A DNA stretch of 64,000 nt. Origin: Streptomyces sp. Je 1-369 (GTDB taxonomy: Bacteria > Actinomycetota > Actinomycetes > Streptomycetales > Streptomycetaceae). Under the pieces are notes generated by a model, which was given only the letters and a program-made list of their open reading frames with translations, made no database searches and had not been told where the DNA came from. The stretch is taken from contig NZ_CP101750.1 in NCBI RefSeq assembly GCF_026810505.1, positions 1,889,448 through 1,953,447 of the forward strand, in the 5' to 3' direction. The position numbers were made by a program, and so were the translations under genes. This document shows, piece after piece, positions 52,532 to 60,201 of the stretch. The number at the start of each line of letters is the position of its first letter. Positions within the stretch are counted from its first letter, which is position 1.

Positions 52532-52801
52532 TCAGCGTCCGCCGAACAGCGAACGCCGCAACCGGCGCAGTGGCGCGAAGAGCGAGACCCGGCTCACTCG
52601 GACACCCCTGCTGCTGCGGGCGTGCGCGGCGTCACGTGAGGTCAGCTCACGCATCAGCAGCGTCGCCTCGTGCGCCTCGCGCTGCGGGACGGCGGGGCCG
52701 CCCAGCACCGAAAGGTGACGATCGAGACGCGAGCTGCTCGCGCTGCTGCCACAAGTGATCGCAGGGACACGCGCCCTGCTGCGCACTGTTATCTGTTCCA
52801 T
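52532..52801 (-). CDS. Small Arg-rich conserved hypothetical protein
   Basis: 89 residues from the ATG at 52801, preceded by GGGAG; a longer reading to 52894 is less likely. MEQITVRSRARVPAITCGSS begins it, LLMRELTSRDAAHARSS follows, and LSLFAPLRRLRRSLFGGR ends it, an amphipathic basic tail. I believe similar small proteins are widespread in Streptomyces but know no function. A 12-bp palindrome lies upstream. Confidence 0.6.
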   Translation of the reverse strand: MEQITVRSRARVPAITCGSSASSSRLDRHLSVLGGPAVPQREAHEATLLMRELTSRDAAHARSSRGVRVSRVSLFAPLRRLRRSLFGGR

Positions 52802-53268
52802 GTCACTCCCCACCCGTACGAGGGCACCCGGCCCAGGGCAGGTTAACCCTATCGCCCCATCGGTACACGCGTGTATCCCGGTCACAGGAATCACCTACCC
52901 CGTAAGGAGGTTGACGATTACTCTCCGAATCCAACTGATTCCAGGGCGAGTTGGACAAAGGGACCGACAGTGGGTCGGAGGGAGCCCGATCGCCCTGCTC
53001 CGGCGGGCGGAGGCCGGTCTCGCCGCGCGTGCGGGCGGACCGGGACGTGGGCTATCTCACGTGCGGTTTCCGCCTCTCGCGGCGCGCCGATGATGACGGA
53101 AGCGGGGAGAAGGGACCGGCTCGGGCACGCACACCTGCCGGTGACCTGCCGGGGCGTTCGGCGTAGGGCAGCCCGGCCCGTTTCCGCAGGGCGGGCGGCG
53201 CCGGGGCGGAGGCCGCGCACGCCAGGCGTACGGGGGACTTCCCGCCCCCTCGGCCCCACAAGTCGGCC
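52802..53268. other. Intergenic region between small gene and sigma factor
   Basis: 467 bp. It contains the palindrome at 52864-52875 and a ribosome-site-like AAGGAGG at 52904-52910 on the plus strand with no ATG or GTG at the right distance. No gene is supported. An anti-sigma gene, which often follows an ECF sigma gene, is absent here. Confidence 0.45.
52864..52875. promoter_or_regulatory. Perfect palindrome TACACGCGTGTA
   Basis: A 12-bp perfect palindrome 63 bp before the small Arg-rich gene, in a locally AT-richer stretch. Candidate operator of an unknown regulator. Confidence 0.4.
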
Positions 53269-53811
53269 TCACAGGGCGGCTTCCAGGCAGTCCCGCAGCC
53301 GCAGCAGCCCGTCGCGCATCCGGGTCTTGACCGTGCCGAGCGGCACGGAGAGGCGCCGGGCCACCTCCCGGTAGGTGCAGCCGTCGTAGTAGGCGAGCAC
53401 GACCGCCTGCCGTTGCAGGTCGGTGAGGCTGCCGAGACAGCCGCGCACCCACTCGCGCTCCAGACCCGCCTCGACCTCCTCGGCGACCTGGTCGTAGGCG
53501 GGGCCCTCGCCGCGCCGCGCCGCCCGCGCCTCCCGGTCGGCCGCCGCCCGCACGCTGCGGACCCGGTCCACCGCCCTGCGGTGCGCGAGCGTGAGGATCC
53601 ACGGCAGGGCGCGGCCGCGGGCCGGGTCGAAACGGGGAGCGCAGCGCCAGAGTTCGACGAGCACTTCCTGGGTCACCTCCTCGGACTGCGCGTGATCGCG
53701 CAGCACCCTGCGCACGAGGCCGAAGACCTGCCCCGCCACCCGGCCGTACAGCTCCTCGAACGCCTCCTGGTCCCCTTTCGCGACCCGCGGCAGCAACTCG
53801 TCCGCTTCCAT
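53269..53811 (-). CDS. sigK: ECF RNA polymerase sigma factor, SigK type
   Basis: 180 residues from the ATG at 53811. Region 2 (about 15-85) has ELYGRVAGQVFGLVRRVL and FDPARGRALPWILTLAHRRA; region 4 (about 120-175) has LGSLTDLQRQAVVLAYYDGC and VPLGTVKTRMRDGLLRLRD. These match SigK/ECF19-type factors. No anti-sigma (RskA-like) gene is adjacent. It is divergent from the DUF4331 operon, and both carry the same promoter architecture ATCC-N15-CCGAAT, so it probably transcribes itself and the operon. Confidence 0.9.
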   Translation of the reverse strand: MEADELLPRVAKGDQEAFEELYGRVAGQVFGLVRRVLRDHAQSEEVTQEVLVELWRCAPRFDPARGRALPWILTLAHRRAVDRVRSVRAAADREARAARRGEGPAYDQVAEEVEAGLEREWVRGCLGSLTDLQRQAVVLAYYDGCTYREVARRLSVPLGTVKTRMRDGLLRLRDCLEAAL

Positions 53812-53861
53812 CCGCTCCCCCGTCCCCCGACGCCTGACGGCCGCTCGTGCGGCTGTCCGGC

Positions 53862-53888
53862 ATTCGGCGCGGGCGCCCTGACGGATGG
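53862..53888 (-). promoter_or_regulatory. SigK-type promoter for sigK
   Basis: On the minus strand: CCATCC (53888-53883), 15 bp, CCGAAT (53867-53862), about 50 bp before the sigK start. I recall CCATCC and CCGAAT as the -35 and -10 of mycobacterial SigK promoters. Confidence 0.65.
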
Positions 53889-53897
53889 AAACCCGGG

Positions 53898-53925
53898 CCA
53901 ATCCGCCCCCGCGGCGGCCCCGAAT
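53898..53925 (+). promoter_or_regulatory. SigK-type promoter for the DUF4331 operon
   Basis: CCAATCC (53898-53904), 15 bp, CCGAAT (53920-53925), about 75 bp before the DUF4331 start. The element ATCC-N15-CCGAAT is the same as on the opposite strand before sigK; the two promoters are arranged back to back. Confidence 0.65.
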
Positions 53926-54001
53926 GGCCTGTGTCAGTCGACCCGTGCGCACCAGTCGGCCGGGTCGGAACAGGTTCATCGGACACGCAAGGACGGATGC
54001 G

Positions 54002-55555
54002 ATGACAGCACATGCCAGGAGCCGGCGGGGGCCTCGCGGCCTCGCCGCGCTGGTCTGCGGCGCACTCGCCGCCGGGGGGCTCGCAGCCGCCGGGGCGAGT
54101 GCGCTGGAGCCCGGCTCCGCGCGGGCCTCCAGCCACCGGGAGGCCCCGCTGATCTCGGGTCAGCCGCAGTACGACAACACGGACGTGTACGCGTTCGTCA
54201 GCCCCGACAAGCCGGACACCACGACGCTCGTGGCGAACTGGACCCCGTTCGAGGAGCCGGCGGGCGGGCCCAACTTCTACCCCTTCCCGGAGGATGCCCA
54301 GTACGACATACACATCGACAGCGACGGCGACGCCCAGGGCGATCTGGTCTACCGCTGGACGTTCGACAGCAAGGTCAAGAACGGCAACACCTTCCTGTAC
54401 AACACCGGCCAGGTGACGAGCCTCGACGACCCCGACCTCAACTTCACGCAGACGTACGACATCGACCTGCTGAAGCTGAAGGACCAGAAGGTCGTCTCCA
54501 CCAAGAAGCTCGCGAACAACCTGCCGGTCGCGCCGTCGCGGGTGGGCGACGCCTCGATGCCCGACTACAAGAAGCTCCGCGACCAGGCGGTGCGGAAGGT
54601 CGCGGGCGGCGGCACGTCGTACGTCGGACAGGCCGACGACCCGTTCTTCCTCGATCTGCAGGTGTTCGACTCGCTGTACGGCGGCGACCTCTCGCAGGTC
54701 GGCGACGACACCCTCAAGGGGTACAGCGTGAACTCGGTCGCGCTGCAGGTCCCGACCGCCGAGATACGCCAGTCGGACAAGCAGCCGACCGTCGGCGTCT
54801 GGTCGACGACCCAGCGCAAGAACGCCAAGGGCGACTACACGCAGGTCTCGCGGCTCGGCAACCCGCTGGTCGACGAGCTCGTGGTGCCGCTGCGCGACAA
54901 GGACAAGTTCAACGCGTCCTCGCCGTGGAACGACGCCGACTTCCTGCCGTACGTCCAGAAGCCCGAGCTGCCGAAGCTCCTGGAGAAGGTCTACGGCATC
55001 AAGGCACCGGCCGAGCCCAGGAAGGACCTGGTCTCCGTCTTCCTGACCGGCGTGAAGGACCTCAACCAGCCGCCGAACGTACGCCCGGCGGAGGCCCTGC
55101 GGCTCAACACCTCCATCAAGCCGTCGGCCGACCCGAAGCGGCTCGGCGTCCTCGACGGGGACACCGCGGGATTCCCGAACGGGCGGCGGCTCGCCGACGA
55201 CGTCGTCGACATCGAGCTGCAGGCCGTCGCGGGTGAACTCGTGGGCAACAAGAACGACCTGGGCGACGCGGTGGACGCGAACGACCGGGCGTTCGGCCAG
55301 ACGTTCCCGTACCTGGCACTGCCCACGTCCCCGACGCACGCGCCGGCGGCCAAGGGCGGCGACGACAACACCTCGATGCGCGGCGCGCTCGGGGGCGGGG
55401 CGGACGTGCAGGCCCCGTCGTCGTCCGACGGGTCCGGCGGGTCCGACGCGGTACTGATCGCCTCCGCGGCGGCCGGGGCCGCGGGTGTGCTGCTCGTCGG
55501 GCTCGGGCTCGCGTGGTGGCGGACGCGCAGGCGGGGGGCCGGCGGGGTCGTCTGA
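54002..55555 (+). CDS. DUF4331 secreted/membrane-anchored protein
   Basis: 517 residues from the ATG at 54002. Signal peptide (LAALVCGALAAGGLAAAGAS), then SSHREAPLISGQPQYDNTDV, the hallmark start of DUF4331, DVYAFVSPDKPDT, and FGQTFPYLALPTSP at the domain end. A Gly/Ser linker, one membrane helix (about 475-500) and the basic tail WWRTRRRG anchor it at the C-terminus. Domain function is unknown. First gene of the presumed SigK-dependent operon with the TPR protein and NicO transporter. Confidence 0.9.
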   Translation: MTAHARSRRGPRGLAALVCGALAAGGLAAAGASALEPGSARASSHREAPLISGQPQYDNTDVYAFVSPDKPDTTTLVANWTPFEEPAGGPNFYPFPEDAQYDIHIDSDGDAQGDLVYRWTFDSKVKNGNTFLYNTGQVTSLDDPDLNFTQTYDIDLLKLKDQKVVSTKKLANNLPVAPSRVGDASMPDYKKLRDQAVRKVAGGGTSYVGQADDPFFLDLQVFDSLYGGDLSQVGDDTLKGYSVNSVALQVPTAEIRQSDKQPTVGVWSTTQRKNAKGDYTQVSRLGNPLVDELVVPLRDKDKFNASSPWNDADFLPYVQKPELPKLLEKVYGIKAPAEPRKDLVSVFLTGVKDLNQPPNVRPAEALRLNTSIKPSADPKRLGVLDGDTAGFPNGRRLADDVVDIELQAVAGELVGNKNDLGDAVDANDRAFGQTFPYLALPTSPTHAPAAKGGDDNTSMRGALGGGADVQAPSSSDGSGGSDAVLIASAAAGAAGVLLVGLGLAWWRTRRRGAGGVV

Positions 55556-55709
55556 GCCCTCCCGGACGCCTTCCGGACCCCTACCGGGTGTCCTGCGGGC
55601 TCCTCCTCGAACGGGCGCGGTCCGCACCTTGATCCCCCTGCGGGCCGCGCCTTTCCCCTTCCCCTCTCACCCTCTCTGCTTCCGCTTCTTCGAACGATTG
55701 GTCTTCTCC

Positions 55710-57047
55710 ATGGCACGCATCTCCGTACGGAGCGCCGTGGCCGTCGTCGCACTGGCCCTCGCGCTCACCTCGGGCGCCGTCATCGTCAACGGCGGTGACG
55801 GCGACGACGGGGCGGGGCGTTCGACGCCCGCAGCGGTCGGACCCGCGGCGCCGCTCGACGGTCTGCGCGGCGGCGACCTGGACCGGGGCGTGGAGGCGCT
55901 CCGGACCAGGCTGCGCGACCAGCCGAAGGACTTCACGTCCTGGGCCACGCTCGGCACGGCCTACGTCGAACAGGCCCGCACCCGCGGCGACCCCGCCCTC
56001 TACCGCGCCGCCGACCGCGCCCTCGACCGCTCGCTGGAGCTGCGCCCCGACTACGACGCGGCGCTCGCGGGGCGCGCCGCCGTCGCCGCCGCCCGGCACG
56101 ACTTCCGCGGCGCCCTGCGCCACGCCAAGGCCGCGCTCGCCGAGAACCCGTACAGCGAACGGGCGCTGGCCACCCGCATCGACGCCCTCGTCGAACTCGG
56201 GCGCTACGGCGAGGCGTCCCGCGCGGCCGACGAGGCGGACGAGCGGCGGCCCGGCGTCCCGGTCTTCACGCGGTACGCGTACGTACGGGAGCTGCGCGGC
56301 GACACGGCGACCGCGCGACGCGTCCTGGAGCGGGCGCTCGACGGGGCGACCGCGCCCGGCGACATCGCGTACGTGGCGACCGCCCTCGGACAACTGGCGT
56401 GGCGGCAGGGTGAGTACGGGGCCGCGCTGCGCCACTGCGGGGCGGCGCTGCGGGCCGACTCCACGTATCTGCCCGCCCTGGAGTGCCGGGCCAGGGCGCG
56501 GGCCGCCAGGGGCGGGACCGCCGCGGCGGTGGCCGGGCTGCGCGATGTCGTCGGGCGGCAGCCGCTGCCGGGTCCTGTCGTCGCGCTCGGCGAGCTGTAC
56601 GAGGCGAAGGGCGACCTGGCGCGGGCTCGCGAGCAGTACCGACTCGTGGACGCGTGGGCCGCGCTGGCCCGCGCCAACGGGGTCGACCCGGACCTCGACA
56701 CGGCGCTCGCCTCGGCCGACCACGGGGACGAGGCGGCGGCGCTGCGGGCGGCGCGGGCCGAGTGGGAGCGGCGCAGGACGGTCCACACGGCGGACGCGCT
56801 CGGGTGGGCGCTGCACGTGAACGGGCGGGACGAGGAGGCGCTGCGGTACGCGCGGCGCGCCACGGCCACGGGGTTCGAGGAGGCGGCGTTCCGCTACCAC
56901 CGCGGGATGATCGAGCGGGCCGTGGGGGACAAGGCGGCCGCCCGCGAGTCGCTGACGTCGGCGCTGCGGCTGAACCCCGGGTTCTCGCCGGTGGGTGCGC
57001 GCGAGGCGCGGGAGGCGCTGCGGTCGCTCGGGGGTGACGCGTCATGA
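55710..57047 (+). CDS. Exported TPR-repeat protein
   Basis: 445 residues from the ATG at 55710. An N-terminal membrane/signal segment (AVAVVALALALTSGAVIV) is followed by about ten tetratricopeptide units from residue 60 on, for example ADRALDRSLELRPDYDAAL, ALRHAKAALAENPYSERAL and EALRYARRATATGFEEA. It is likely a scaffold on the outer face of the membrane. The stop overlaps the NicO start (ATGA), so the two are translationally coupled. The 154-bp gap from DUF4331 is pyrimidine-rich, with no clear terminator. Confidence 0.88.
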   Translation: MARISVRSAVAVVALALALTSGAVIVNGGDGDDGAGRSTPAAVGPAAPLDGLRGGDLDRGVEALRTRLRDQPKDFTSWATLGTAYVEQARTRGDPALYRAADRALDRSLELRPDYDAALAGRAAVAAARHDFRGALRHAKAALAENPYSERALATRIDALVELGRYGEASRAADEADERRPGVPVFTRYAYVRELRGDTATARRVLERALDGATAPGDIAYVATALGQLAWRQGEYGAALRHCGAALRADSTYLPALECRARARAARGGTAAAVAGLRDVVGRQPLPGPVVALGELYEAKGDLARAREQYRLVDAWAALARANGVDPDLDTALASADHGDEAAALRAARAEWERRRTVHTADALGWALHVNGRDEEALRYARRATATGFEEAAFRYHRGMIERAVGDKAAARESLTSALRLNPGFSPVGAREAREALRSLGGDAS

Positions 57048-58486
57048 GGCGCCGGACGCTGTGGGCGGTGTGGGCCGGTGTGGTGCTCGGGGTGGTCGTC
57101 GCGCTGGGCGGTCCCGGCGGCACCGCGCACGCGCACCCGCTGGGCAACTTCACCGTCGGCCGGTACGACGGACTCGTCGCCGGGCCGGGGCGCCTCACGG
57201 TCGACCACGTGGAGGACCTCGCCGAGATCCCCGCCGCCCAGGCCGCCCCCCGCATCCGTGCGGCGGGCCGCGCCGCCTGGGCACGGCAGCGCTGCCGGGA
57301 CGCGGCCGACGATGCCCGTGTCACCGTGGCGGGACGGGCCGCGGAGCTGACCCTGGGCGCCGCGCGGGCCCGCGTCCGGCCGGGGCAGGCGGGGCTCGAC
57401 ACCCTCCGCGTGGAGTGCACCCTCACCGCTGCCCTGCCACGGGAGGACGGGGTGAGCGTCGAGTTCCGGAGCGGCGCGCGGGACGGCACCGGCTGGCGGG
57501 AGATCACCGCCCGCGGCGACCGGGCGACCCTCACCCGCTCCGACGTGCCGGAGACGTCCGCGTCCGAGCGGCTCACCCGCTACCCGAAGCGGCTGCTCTC
57601 CGCCCCGCCCGACACCGCGTCCGCGTCGCTGCGGATCACGCCGGGCGGCCCCGCCCTCTCGGACAGCCGCCCCGAGGAGAGGGGTAGCGGCGTGGCCTCC
57701 GTGCTGCCGCGTGGAGCCGACCGGTGGGCGCGGGCCCTCACCGGCCTCGTCGGCCGGCACCCGCTCACCCCGGCCTTCGCGGCGCTCGCCCTCGGCACCG
57801 CCGTGCTCCTCGGCGCCCTGCACGCGCTCGCGCCGGGCCACGGCAAGACACTCATGGCCGCCACCGCGGCGGCCCGCGGCCGTGCCTCCGTACGCGACGT
57901 GCTGCCGCTCGCCGCATCCGTGACCGTCACGCACACCCTGGGCGTGCTCGCCCTCGGCCTGCTGGTGAGCGGGGGCTCCGCCGCGGGTCCTTCGGTGGTC
58001 GCCTGGCTCGGCGTGGTCAGCGGGCTGCTCGTCACGGGCGCGGGGGTGCTGCTGGTGCGCAGGGCATGGCTGCGACGGCGCAGGACGGGCCGCCACGAGC
58101 ACACACATGACCACGGTCACACGCATCATCACGACCACGGCCACCACCACTCCCCCGGCACCGGCCTGCGCGGCATGCTCTTCCTCGGGTTCGCCGGGGG
58201 TCTGGTGCCGAGCCCGTCCGCCGTCGTCGTGCTCGTCGGTGCCGCCGCGCTCGGCGAGGCGTGGTTCGGGCTGTCGCTCGTGCTGGCGTACGGGGTGGGG
58301 CTCGCCGTGACGCTGACGGCCGCCGGGTTCCTCGTCGTGCGCGTGGGCGCGTTCGCGGGGCGGCGCGTGGGTCCGGAGTGGGTGCGCCGCGGCACCCGGC
58401 GGTTCCTGCCGCTCGGTTCGGCCTGCGTGGTTCTCGCCCTTGGGTGTGGATTGGTGTTCAAGGGGGCTGCAACGGCGCTCGGTTGA
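57044..58486 (+). CDS. NicO/RcnA-type nickel/cobalt transporter
   Basis: 480 residues. An N-terminal signal and HAHPLGNFTVGRYDG begin an exported domain of about 210 residues. The membrane part starts near 235 with LLGALHALAPGHGKTLM, the NicO signature, followed by ASVTVTHTLGVLALG. A His-rich cytosolic loop at residues 351-369 has 12 His. FAGGLVPSPSAVVVLVGAA completes the family pattern. It probably moves Ni2+ or Co2+; direction is not certain. ATGA overlap with the TPR gene. Confidence 0.92.
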   Translation: MRRRTLWAVWAGVVLGVVVALGGPGGTAHAHPLGNFTVGRYDGLVAGPGRLTVDHVEDLAEIPAAQAAPRIRAAGRAAWARQRCRDAADDARVTVAGRAAELTLGAARARVRPGQAGLDTLRVECTLTAALPREDGVSVEFRSGARDGTGWREITARGDRATLTRSDVPETSASERLTRYPKRLLSAPPDTASASLRITPGGPALSDSRPEERGSGVASVLPRGADRWARALTGLVGRHPLTPAFAALALGTAVLLGALHALAPGHGKTLMAATAAARGRASVRDVLPLAASVTVTHTLGVLALGLLVSGGSAAGPSVVAWLGVVSGLLVTGAGVLLVRRAWLRRRRTGRHEHTHDHGHTHHHDHGHHHSPGTGLRGMLFLGFAGGLVPSPSAVVVLVGAAALGEAWFGLSLVLAYGVGLAVTLTAAGFLVVRVGAFAGRRVGPEWVRRGTRRFLPLGSACVVLALGCGLVFKGAATALG

Positions 58487-58530: not shown

Positions 58531-60201
58531 GTGAGCCGGCCAGAGCACGTGATCGCCGGGCGGTACCGGCTCCTGGCCCCGTTGGGCGAGGGCGGCATGG
58601 GCACGGTGTGGCGGGCCCGTGACGAGGTGCTCGGCCGCGAGGTCGCCGTCAAGGAAGTGCGCGCGCCCGCCGGGCTACCGGCACCCGACGTGGACCGGCT
58701 GTACGTGCGCCTCGAGCGGGAGGCCTGGGCGGCCGCCCGCATCCCGCACCGGAACGTGGTGACGGTCTACGACGTGGCGAGCGAGGACGGCCGTCCCTGG
58801 ATCGTCATGGAGCTGGTGCGCGGCCTGTCGCTCTCCGACGTACTGGCGGCCGAGGGCGCGCTGACCCCGCAGCGGACCGCCGAGATCGGTGCCGAGATCC
58901 TCGGCGCGCTGCGTGCCGCGCACGACGCCGGGGTCCTGCACCGCGACGTGAAGCCCGGCAACGTACTCGTCGCGAACGACGGCCGCGTGGTCCTGACGGA
59001 CTTCGGGATCGCGCTGGTCGAGGGGAGTTCGGCGCTGACGATGACCGGCGAGGTCGTCGGGTCGCCCGAGTTCCTCGCCCCGGAGCGTGCGTTGGGGCAG
59101 CGTCCGGGGCCCGCGTCCGACCTGTGGTCGCTCGGCGTGCTGCTGTACGCCGCGGTGGAGGGCAGCTCACCGTTCCGCCAGGACACGCCGTTGAGCACGT
59201 TGCGCGCGGTGGTGGACGAGGAGTTGCCGCCCGCCCGCCGCGCCGGTCCCCTCACGTCGGTCATCGAGGGGCTGCTCCGCAAGGATCCGGCCGAACGGAT
59301 GTCCGCCGCCGAGGCCGAACGCGATCTGCGGATCGTGGCCGGGGGCGGCACCCCGCGCACGGAGGCGGCGTTCCCCTACCTGCCGACGACCACGGCCGAG
59401 CGGCCGCCCTCCGGGGCGACGCCGCCCACCCCCTTCCCCGTGCCGCCACCGGGACCCGCCACGGTCGTCGGCACCCCGGCGGACGAGCCGCACCGGGACC
59501 GCCGTGCGAGGGTCGCCCTGGTGGCGGGGCTCGTCGCGCTGGCGCTCGCCCTGGGCGGCATCACGTACGCCCTGGTCGGCCGGGACGGCGACGGCGGGGG
59601 CGGCGACGACAAAGGGAGCCAGAACAGCGGCGCCGGGTCCACCGGGTCCACCGGCGACAAGGACGGGAACGGGTCGGCCGGGTCCACGGGCGGCGGCACC
59701 GGAGGCAACGGCGGCACCGGAGGCAACGGCAGCACCGGAGGCAGTGGCGGCAACAACGGCGGGAACAACGGAACCGGTGGCGACAACGGCGGTAACGGCG
59801 GCAGCACCAAGCCGCCCGCCCAGAGCGTGAAGGTGCACGTCGTGGGCGCCCACACGCAGTACGAGGGCGCGTGTCCGCCGGGCGCCGGTCAGGCGCCGTC
59901 GTTCACCGCGACGTTCACGGTGGGGCGCGTCCCCGCCACCGTCGAGTACCGCTGGGTCACGGCGTCCGGCGAGTCCGGCGACCCGGGCTGGAAGACGCTG
60001 TCCCTCTCCTCCGGCGGCGGGAAGTCCCGGCAGGTCAACCACGTGGAGACCGCGTACGACCAGGGCGGAGGGACGTATCAGAACTCCGTCCACGTCCAAG
60101 TGCGCCGGCCGGTGTCGGCGACGTCGAACTCGGTGGCGTACACGGTGTCCTGTGAGCAGGAGACCCCGACGGGCGGGGCCTCCTACACACCGAACGGATA
60201 G
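58531..60201 (+). CDS. Transmembrane Ser/Thr protein kinase with extracellular sensor domain
   Basis: 556 residues, GTG start after GGGGG. Kinase domain 12-270: LGEGGMGTVW, Lys41 (VAVKEV), Asp139 (HRDVKPGN), Asp157 (DFG), and GEVVGSPEFLAPER as activation loop end. A Pro-rich juxtamembrane stretch precedes one membrane helix (ARVALVAGLVALALALGGIT, near 325-345). Outside, a long Gly/Asn/Thr linker leads to an Ig-like domain of about 110 residues with two Cys (YEGACPPG and TVSCEQE). It starts 45 bp after NicO and may read the same envelope condition. Confidence 0.94.
   Translation: MSRPEHVIAGRYRLLAPLGEGGMGTVWRARDEVLGREVAVKEVRAPAGLPAPDVDRLYVRLEREAWAAARIPHRNVVTVYDVASEDGRPWIVMELVRGLSLSDVLAAEGALTPQRTAEIGAEILGALRAAHDAGVLHRDVKPGNVLVANDGRVVLTDFGIALVEGSSALTMTGEVVGSPEFLAPERALGQRPGPASDLWSLGVLLYAAVEGSSPFRQDTPLSTLRAVVDEELPPARRAGPLTSVIEGLLRKDPAERMSAAEAERDLRIVAGGGTPRTEAAFPYLPTTTAERPPSGATPPTPFPVPPPGPATVVGTPADEPHRDRRARVALVAGLVALALALGGITYALVGRDGDGGGGDDKGSQNSGAGSTGSTGDKDGNGSAGSTGGGTGGNGGTGGNGSTGGSGGNNGGNNGTGGDNGGNGGSTKPPAQSVKVHVVGAHTQYEGACPPGAGQAPSFTATFTVGRVPATVEYRWVTASGESGDPGWKTLSLSSGGGKSRQVNHVETAYDQGGGTYQNSVHVQVRRPVSATSNSVAYTVSCEQETPTGGASYTPNG

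What the first reader, a model, noticed from the sequence alone, without database searches (positions are those of the whole stretch)
53262..58486. SigK-type sigma factor with back-to-back SigK-type promoters and an envelope metal operon, but no anti-sigma
Sequence: minus strand CCATCC-N15-CCGAAT before sigK and plus strand CCAATCC-N15-CCGAAT before the DUF4331 gene share ATCC-N15-CCGAAT exactly. Known (from memory): SigK of mycobacteria reads CCATCC/CCGAAT promoters and is held by RskA. Here no RskA-like gene lies next to sigK; the divergent operon is DUF4331, exported TPR protein, NicO transporter. Inference: an autoregulated SigK regulon for nickel/cobalt or an envelope signal in which one of the exported proteins may replace RskA.
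Basis: partly seen in the sequence, partly recalled or inferred. Interest (0 to 1): 0.7.

Follow-up and report, generated by a model that had tools for sequence, protein, structure and literature searches.

The report
Streptomyces SigK that lost its anti-sigma
In one small group of Streptomyces the gene for the protein that normally holds the gene switch SigK in check has rotted away, while SigK, its own promoter and its main target promoter have been kept, which makes a natural test of whether SigK can work alone.

Summary
The motif pair is real: ATCC-N15-CCGAAT occurs twice in the window (0.02 expected) and six times in the 8.82 Mb genome. The sigma factor is a SigK, divergent from a DUF4331-TPR-NicO operon. 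The missing anti-sigma has a simple explanation. In 79 of the 80 best-matching Streptomyces loci rskA follows sigK; the 80th is a contig end. In the window that place holds a decayed rskA: the anti-sigma domain and membrane helix are gone and three ordered scraps remain. S. atriruber shares one scrap, and two more relatives have SigK tails that look like read-through into another. SigK keeps both cysteines of the RskA-controlled type and is under purifying selection (dN/dS 0.17), though it evolves faster than in relatives. Most likely SigK now runs without RskA, governed by its own promoter. Replacement by an exported neighbour is not supported: they coexist with rskA in relatives and lack its zinc-finger motif. 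Nickel or cobalt control is untested. No expression data were available.

The parts
53269..53811 (-). sigK, ECF sigma factor of the SigK family, 180 aa, conserved Cys125 and Cys175
   Evidence: NCBIfam SigK 285 bits over cut-off 226; aligns to M. tuberculosis SigK 4nqw over 176 residues
53862..53888 (-). SigK-type promoter of sigK: CCATCC-N15-CCGAAT
   Evidence: both hexamers and the N15 spacing identical in S. atriruber L009
53898..53925 (+). SigK-type promoter of the DUF4331 operon: CCAATCC-N15-CCGAAT
   Evidence: ATCC-N15-CCGAAT in 68 of 81 upstream regions of 400 bp
53161..53233 (-). rskA remnant A: linker just after the anti-sigma domain (VRLACAASAPAPPALRKRAG at 53231-53172), in another reading frame than B and C
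   Evidence: blastn hits in 59 of the 80 loci searched, S. atriruber included; best with an intact gene 84% over 55 bp; frame
53023..53064 (-). rskA remnant B: AREIAHVPVRPHAR, the segment after the membrane helix
   Evidence: blastn hits in 23 of 80 loci, between A and C by median position
52918..52977 (-). rskA remnant C: RPTVGPFVQLALESVGFGE and stop, the RskA C-terminus
   Evidence: blastn hits in 77 of 80 loci; RskA profile positions 239-261, E 7e-4
54002..55555 (+). DUF4331 protein with signal peptide and C-terminal membrane anchor (topology by eye)
   Evidence: PF14224, 519 bits
55710..57047 (+). exported TPR protein (export by eye)
   Evidence: Pfam TPR families
57044..58486 (+). NicO-family membrane protein with a His-rich loop; start overlaps the TPR stop
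   Evidence: PF03824, 31.7 bits over cut-off 27.7; sequence
52532..52801 (-). next reading frame downstream of the remnant, 89 aa, no Pfam or NCBIfam family
   Evidence: a matching ATG lies 114-137 bp after the rskA stop in 67 of 77 relatives

Best explanation
This is a SigK/RskA locus that has lost its anti-sigma factor. Shown from sequence: relatives have sigK-rskA divergent from DUF4331-TPR-NicO; in the window the start and anti-sigma domain of rskA and its membrane helix are missing and the rest is decaying; sigK and both SigK-type promoter sequences are kept. Inferred: SigK is no longer held at the membrane and binds RNA polymerase whenever it is made, so its activity follows its own amount. 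That amount is set by its autoregulated promoter and by basal transcription, which gives a standing, signal-independent expression of sigK and of the DUF4331 operon. By analogy with tested SigK proteins this would be the Low-On state unless SigK has adapted.
For: The window has three ordered rskA scraps in two reading frames and no hydrophobic segment (best 19-residue hydropathy 0.94, against 2.02-2.82 in the ten relatives' RskA printed). The only full-length RskA found in the genome lies at 7.19 Mb beside a second SigK-like gene. S. atriruber shares remnant A, 85% over 132 bp. Among 120 SigK proteins, 108 tails could be parsed: the three longest (22, 13, 11 residues; the other 105 have 8 or fewer) belong to three of the nearest relatives, and two of them end in KPHVR, which the window encodes before a stop in the alternative frame at remnant B. 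SigK is kept with dN/dS 0.17, Cys125 and Cys175 are invariant in 71 of 71, and the sigK promoter hexamers and spacing are identical between the window and S. atriruber although the two promoters are 14 bp apart in the one and 59 bp in the other.
Against: No expression data. In tested SigK/RskA pairs RskA is also needed for full activity (PMC7509140), so a two-cysteine SigK without RskA may be weak. SigK evolves faster here (non-synonymous rate relative to DUF4331 plus TPR is the highest of 22 sister pairs), which also fits a gene on its way out. Several close DUF4331 relatives (S. kanamyceticus, NPDC052114, NPDC004732, NPDC029674) are not named in the 120 best SigK hits; clusters hide members, but this could mean sigK loss, and their loci could not be fetched. 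An unadjacent anti-sigma could act on SigK. The sigK-side promoter is strict in only 11 of 81 regions.
Confidence: 0.6

Rival explanations
1. Another anti-sigma factor in the genome, first of all the RskA at 7.19 Mb that sits beside a second SigK-like gene, now also holds this SigK.
For: One intact RskA exists next to a SigK-like paralogue; other proteins match the RskA N-terminal part weakly (3.43 Mb E 6.5e-8; 8.06, 3.91 and 2.15 Mb weaker).
Against: That RskA has a median identity of about 37% to the RskA of this locus in relatives. A passage of PMC7406223 says anti-sigma factors of one ECF group were found mostly orthogonal.
Confidence: 0.2
2. SigK needs RskA as its activator, is almost inactive without it, and is slowly being lost; the DUF4331 operon is driven by another promoter.
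For: Tested SigK alone is only Low-On (PMC7509140); faster SigK evolution; possible sigK loss in close DUF4331 relatives.
Against: SigK dN/dS is 0.17; its cysteines, reading frame and promoter sequence are intact; SigK is kept in the window's species, S. atriruber, NPDC046465 and NPDC058308, and in S. venezuelae P0242, where the state of rskA was not seen.
Confidence: 0.15
3. One reading: one of the exported proteins of the divergent operon replaces RskA.
For: They are exported or membrane proteins next door (export by eye).
Against: Of 79 loci with an RskA match 77, 75 and 72 also have DUF4331, TPR and NicO; none of the three window proteins has the H-x3-C-x2-C motif or, by eye, a sizeable cytoplasmic N-terminus.
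Confidence: 0.03

Closest known systems
SigK-RskA of Mycobacterium tuberculosis and Yersinia (PMC7509140: abstract, two of three Results parts, section 12 and Discussion read)
   Same: Same sigma family, both conserved cysteines; relatives of the window have the sigK-rskA operon
   Different: RskA is gone here; in M. bovis and M. orygis RskA is mutated and activates SigK
Nocardia SigK with truncated RskA (PMC7509140, section 12)
   Same: RskA lost its membrane and outer part while SigK stayed
   Different: Nocardia keeps the N-terminal 81 residues, which still inhibit, and its SigK lost both cysteines; here the N-terminal part is lost, a C-terminal scrap stays and the cysteines are kept
ECF19 with anti-sigma group AS19-1 (PMC7406223: passages and part 1 of 2 of section 7 read)
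   Same: RskA of 12 aligned relatives has HSLAxPYALDAL and, in the consensus, RRFERHL, like the AS19-1 consensus HTLAGAYALDAL and LDDERAAFERHL
   Different: This domain is deleted in the window

Membership tests
SigK (ECF sigma factor) | Sigma-70 regions 2 and 4 and a match over the curated SigK cut-off | tested here: met
   285 bits, cut-off 226
SigK (ECF sigma factor) | Two cysteines equivalent to C133 and C183 of M. tuberculosis SigK | tested here: met
   Cys125 and Cys175, 71 of 71 sequences
SigK (ECF sigma factor) | CCATCC/CCGAAT promoters (consensus recalled, not found in a held paper) | tested here: inconclusive
   sequence present; no 5' ends mapped
SigK-RskA sigma/anti-sigma system | Adjacent gene for a membrane protein with an N-terminal anti-sigma domain | tested here: not met
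   decayed remnant only
SigK-RskA sigma/anti-sigma system | SigK held inactive until RskA is cleaved or altered | not testable with these tools
   needs expression and binding tests
Nickel/cobalt efflux transporter (NCBIfam NF007454) | Match over the curated cut-off of the model | tested here: not met
   86.9 bits against 195; the broader Pfam NicO is met narrowly

The most novel reading that the evidence does not exclude
A clade of Streptomyces runs a two-cysteine SigK with no RskA at all, so SigK here has become independent of the activator-inhibitor partner that tested SigK proteins need for full activity, and is controlled only by how much of itself it makes.
Probability: 0.35. Interest if true: 0.6.

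Novelty: new variant of a known kind. Interest (0 to 1): 0.42.

Why it matters
PMC7509140 reports that RskA both blocks and activates SigK and that 98% of SigK proteins with both cysteines have an RskA. A lineage that lost the inhibiting and activating domain while keeping SigK, its cysteines and its promoter sequences lets that model be tested with natural variants, and shows one way in which an orphan ECF sigma factor arises.

Tried and rejected
Considered and rejected: an assembly artefact (a separate record, S. atriruber, has the same sequence after sigK); a translated short RskA (remnant A lies in another frame than B and C, no hydrophobic segment); a moved RskA (the only full-length one found in the genome has a SigK-like gene of its own).

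Left open: the size of the regulon. Outside the locus the relaxed pattern has 5 matches. The 4 strict ones were read: each lies in one or more open frames of over 150 codons, and two (8.35 and 8.53 Mb) have, by eye, a possible gene start shortly downstream. The fifth (0.53 Mb) was not examined.

Led nowhere: finding more genomes of the clade (searches gave G081, that is S. atriruber, and genomes further away, beside the own genome where it was included); the 3' part of the remnant in S. atriruber (one search found neither it nor the next gene, so the region may be missing from that assembly); literature on DUF4331 (0 papers); the SigK consensus in print; a consensus scan for ordinary promoters and terminators (none).

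Results against the reading: the sigK-side promoter is strict in only 11 of 81 regions; one loose exploratory pattern of the seven gave 5 and 4 matches against 2 and 2 in the reversed control; the relaxed genome pattern has one control match; SigK is accelerated (Fisher p 0.014 on one clade, not corrected).
Full report
What is there. The sigma gene at 53269-53811(-) has sigma-70 regions 2 and 4 and passes the NCBIfam SigK model (285 bits, cut-off 226). Divergent from it lie a DUF4331 gene, a TPR gene and a NicO-family gene. ATCC-N15-CCGAAT occurs once before each side and nowhere else in the 64 kb window (0.02 expected); the genome has 6 exact matches and the reversed pattern none. With G or C at the first -10 base there are 7, reversed control 1. 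The four strict matches outside the locus each lie in at least one long open frame; two of them (8.35 and 8.53 Mb) have by eye a possible gene start shortly downstream, and the fifth outside match, at 0.53 Mb, was not examined. I infer a small regulon, centred on this locus; this was not tested.

Conservation. DUF4331 is matched in 78 of 80, TPR in 76 and NicO in 73, on the strand opposite to sigK in every locus with a match, and in the same order by median position. In 81 upstream regions (80 loci and the window; 400 bp; spacer 14-17 allowed) the element is found on the operon side in 68, always with N15, and on the sigK side in 11, ten of them with N15; shuffled regions gave 2 of 1620 and 0 of 1620. 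In 250 bp regions, with any base at the first -10 position, the sigK side is found in 44 of 81 and the operon side in 66 of 81, with 0 for the reversed control. So the operon promoter is well conserved, and the sigK promoter is a weaker version in many species. The window and S. atriruber have the strict element on both sides. The two elements are 14 bp apart in the window and 59 bp apart in S. atriruber.

The missing anti-sigma is a decayed gene. An RskA match follows sigK on the same strand in 79 of 80 loci; 77 of the 79 are full-length frames with a stop. The exception is S. atriruber L009, whose contig ends 212 bp after sigK. The two relatives' RskA proteins scanned carry RskA_C, RskA_N and zf-HC2 domains. 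In the window the stretch after sigK still aligns with rskA in three ordered pieces. Against the 80 loci, hits sorted by their midpoint fall as follows: A, the linker after the anti-sigma domain, in 59 (S. atriruber included); B, the segment after the membrane helix, in 23; C, the C-terminus with its stop codon, in 77. The alignment shows that the start and the whole anti-sigma domain are missing, and so is the membrane helix (that alignment misplaces piece B; searches place it). Piece A is in another frame than B and C, and no frame holds a hydrophobic segment. A profile of 12 RskA proteins finds one full-length RskA in the genome, at 7.19 Mb beside a SigK-like gene, and piece C in the window, E 7e-4.

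Who shares the loss. S. atriruber shares piece A (85% over 132 bp). Two relatives known here only as proteins, NPDC046465 and NPDC058308 (SigK 85 and 84% identical), have SigK tails ending in KPHVR; the window encodes KPHVR and a stop at piece B in the alternative frame, and 38 of 79 rskA genes of relatives read HVR there. I infer that in these two the sigK reading frame runs into rskA debris. Among the 120 best SigK hits these two and S. atriruber have the three longest tails of the 108 that could be parsed. None of the seven DUF4331 proteins nearest to the window's (P0001-P0007) has its contig length or species among the 120 best RskA hits, while seven of the next sixteen (P0008-P0023) do (my comparison; lists are capped and clusters hide members, so suggestive only).

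Why a scrap of rskA is left. In the last 12 codons of rskA third-position identity is 0.9-1.0 at ten positions and 0.5 at two, against 0.53-0.73 in the other 15-residue stretches, and the ATG of the next reading frame follows at 114-137 bp in 67 of 77 loci. Piece C is thus probably kept as DNA for the next gene (52801-52532, no known family), not as protein. This is inference.

SigK after the loss. Against S. atriruber dN/dS is 0.166 for sigK; the 21 other sister pairs range from 0 to 0.19. SigK non-synonymous change relative to DUF4331 plus TPR is 0.44, the highest of 22 pairs (next 0.295); Fisher test against DUF4331 alone p 0.014. On a tree of the 71 of 81 sequences that had all three genes at more than 85% length, SigK tip lengths of the window and S. 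atriruber are 0.104 and 0.111 against 0.048 and 0.065 for DUF4331, while whole-tree lengths are 5.5 and 6.7. SigK is therefore under weaker but real constraint. Cys125 and Cys175, equivalent by alignment to C133 and C183 of M. tuberculosis SigK (numbering from PMC7509140), are invariant in 71 of 71.

Mechanism. Shown: the loss of the anti-sigma domain and the retention of sigK and both promoter sequences. Established for other SigK proteins (PMC7509140; I read the abstract, two of three Results parts, section 12 and the Discussion): full RskA gives Off, SigK alone gives Low-On, and certain RskA mutants and truncations give High-On; 98% of two-cysteine SigK have an RskA. Inferred: in this clade SigK is free, its activity follows its own autoregulated synthesis, and the DUF4331 operon is expressed without the ancestral signal. 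The rivals are control by a non-cognate anti-sigma and a SigK on its way to loss. The proposal that an exported neighbour took over is not supported.

Novelty. Natural alteration of RskA is known (M. bovis, M. orygis, Nocardia; PMC7509140). Loss of the inhibiting and activating domain with a retained two-cysteine SigK is a different variant. I found no report of it in the searches (listings seen, some cut to the best rows; two papers opened), which cover open-licence papers only.

Noticed in passing
window 52900-52986 and 52532-52801 (-): The 3' end of rskA and the stretch up to the next small reading frame are strongly conserved at DNA level across Streptomyces, even in the pseudogene; probably the control region of that 89-aa gene of unknown family.
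   Followed up: partly
L007, genome C1:7188228-7191671: A second SigK-like gene with rskA in the same genome; upstream of its sigma gene lies CCAATCC-N15-ACGTAT (by eye), a variant of the same promoter.
   Followed up: partly
upstream regions of sigK in the related loci: A third conserved element, GATCCGTAAC, lies upstream of sigK in 42 of 81 regions and is, by eye, missing in the window.
   Followed up: no
L043, L046, L051, L061, L068, L083, L088: By eye the operon promoter of these loci has CCGTAT in place of CCGAAT, with a spacer of 16 where an ATCC is present, a lineage variant.
   Followed up: no
window SigK residue 145: A tyrosine present in 69 of 69 other relatives is cysteine here and in P0242 and P0245, phenylalanine in P0244, tyrosine in S. 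atriruber.
   Followed up: no
window 58531-60201 (+): A serine/threonine kinase gene follows the operon; similar kinases are matched in 65 of 80 related loci, not checked for orthology.
   Followed up: no
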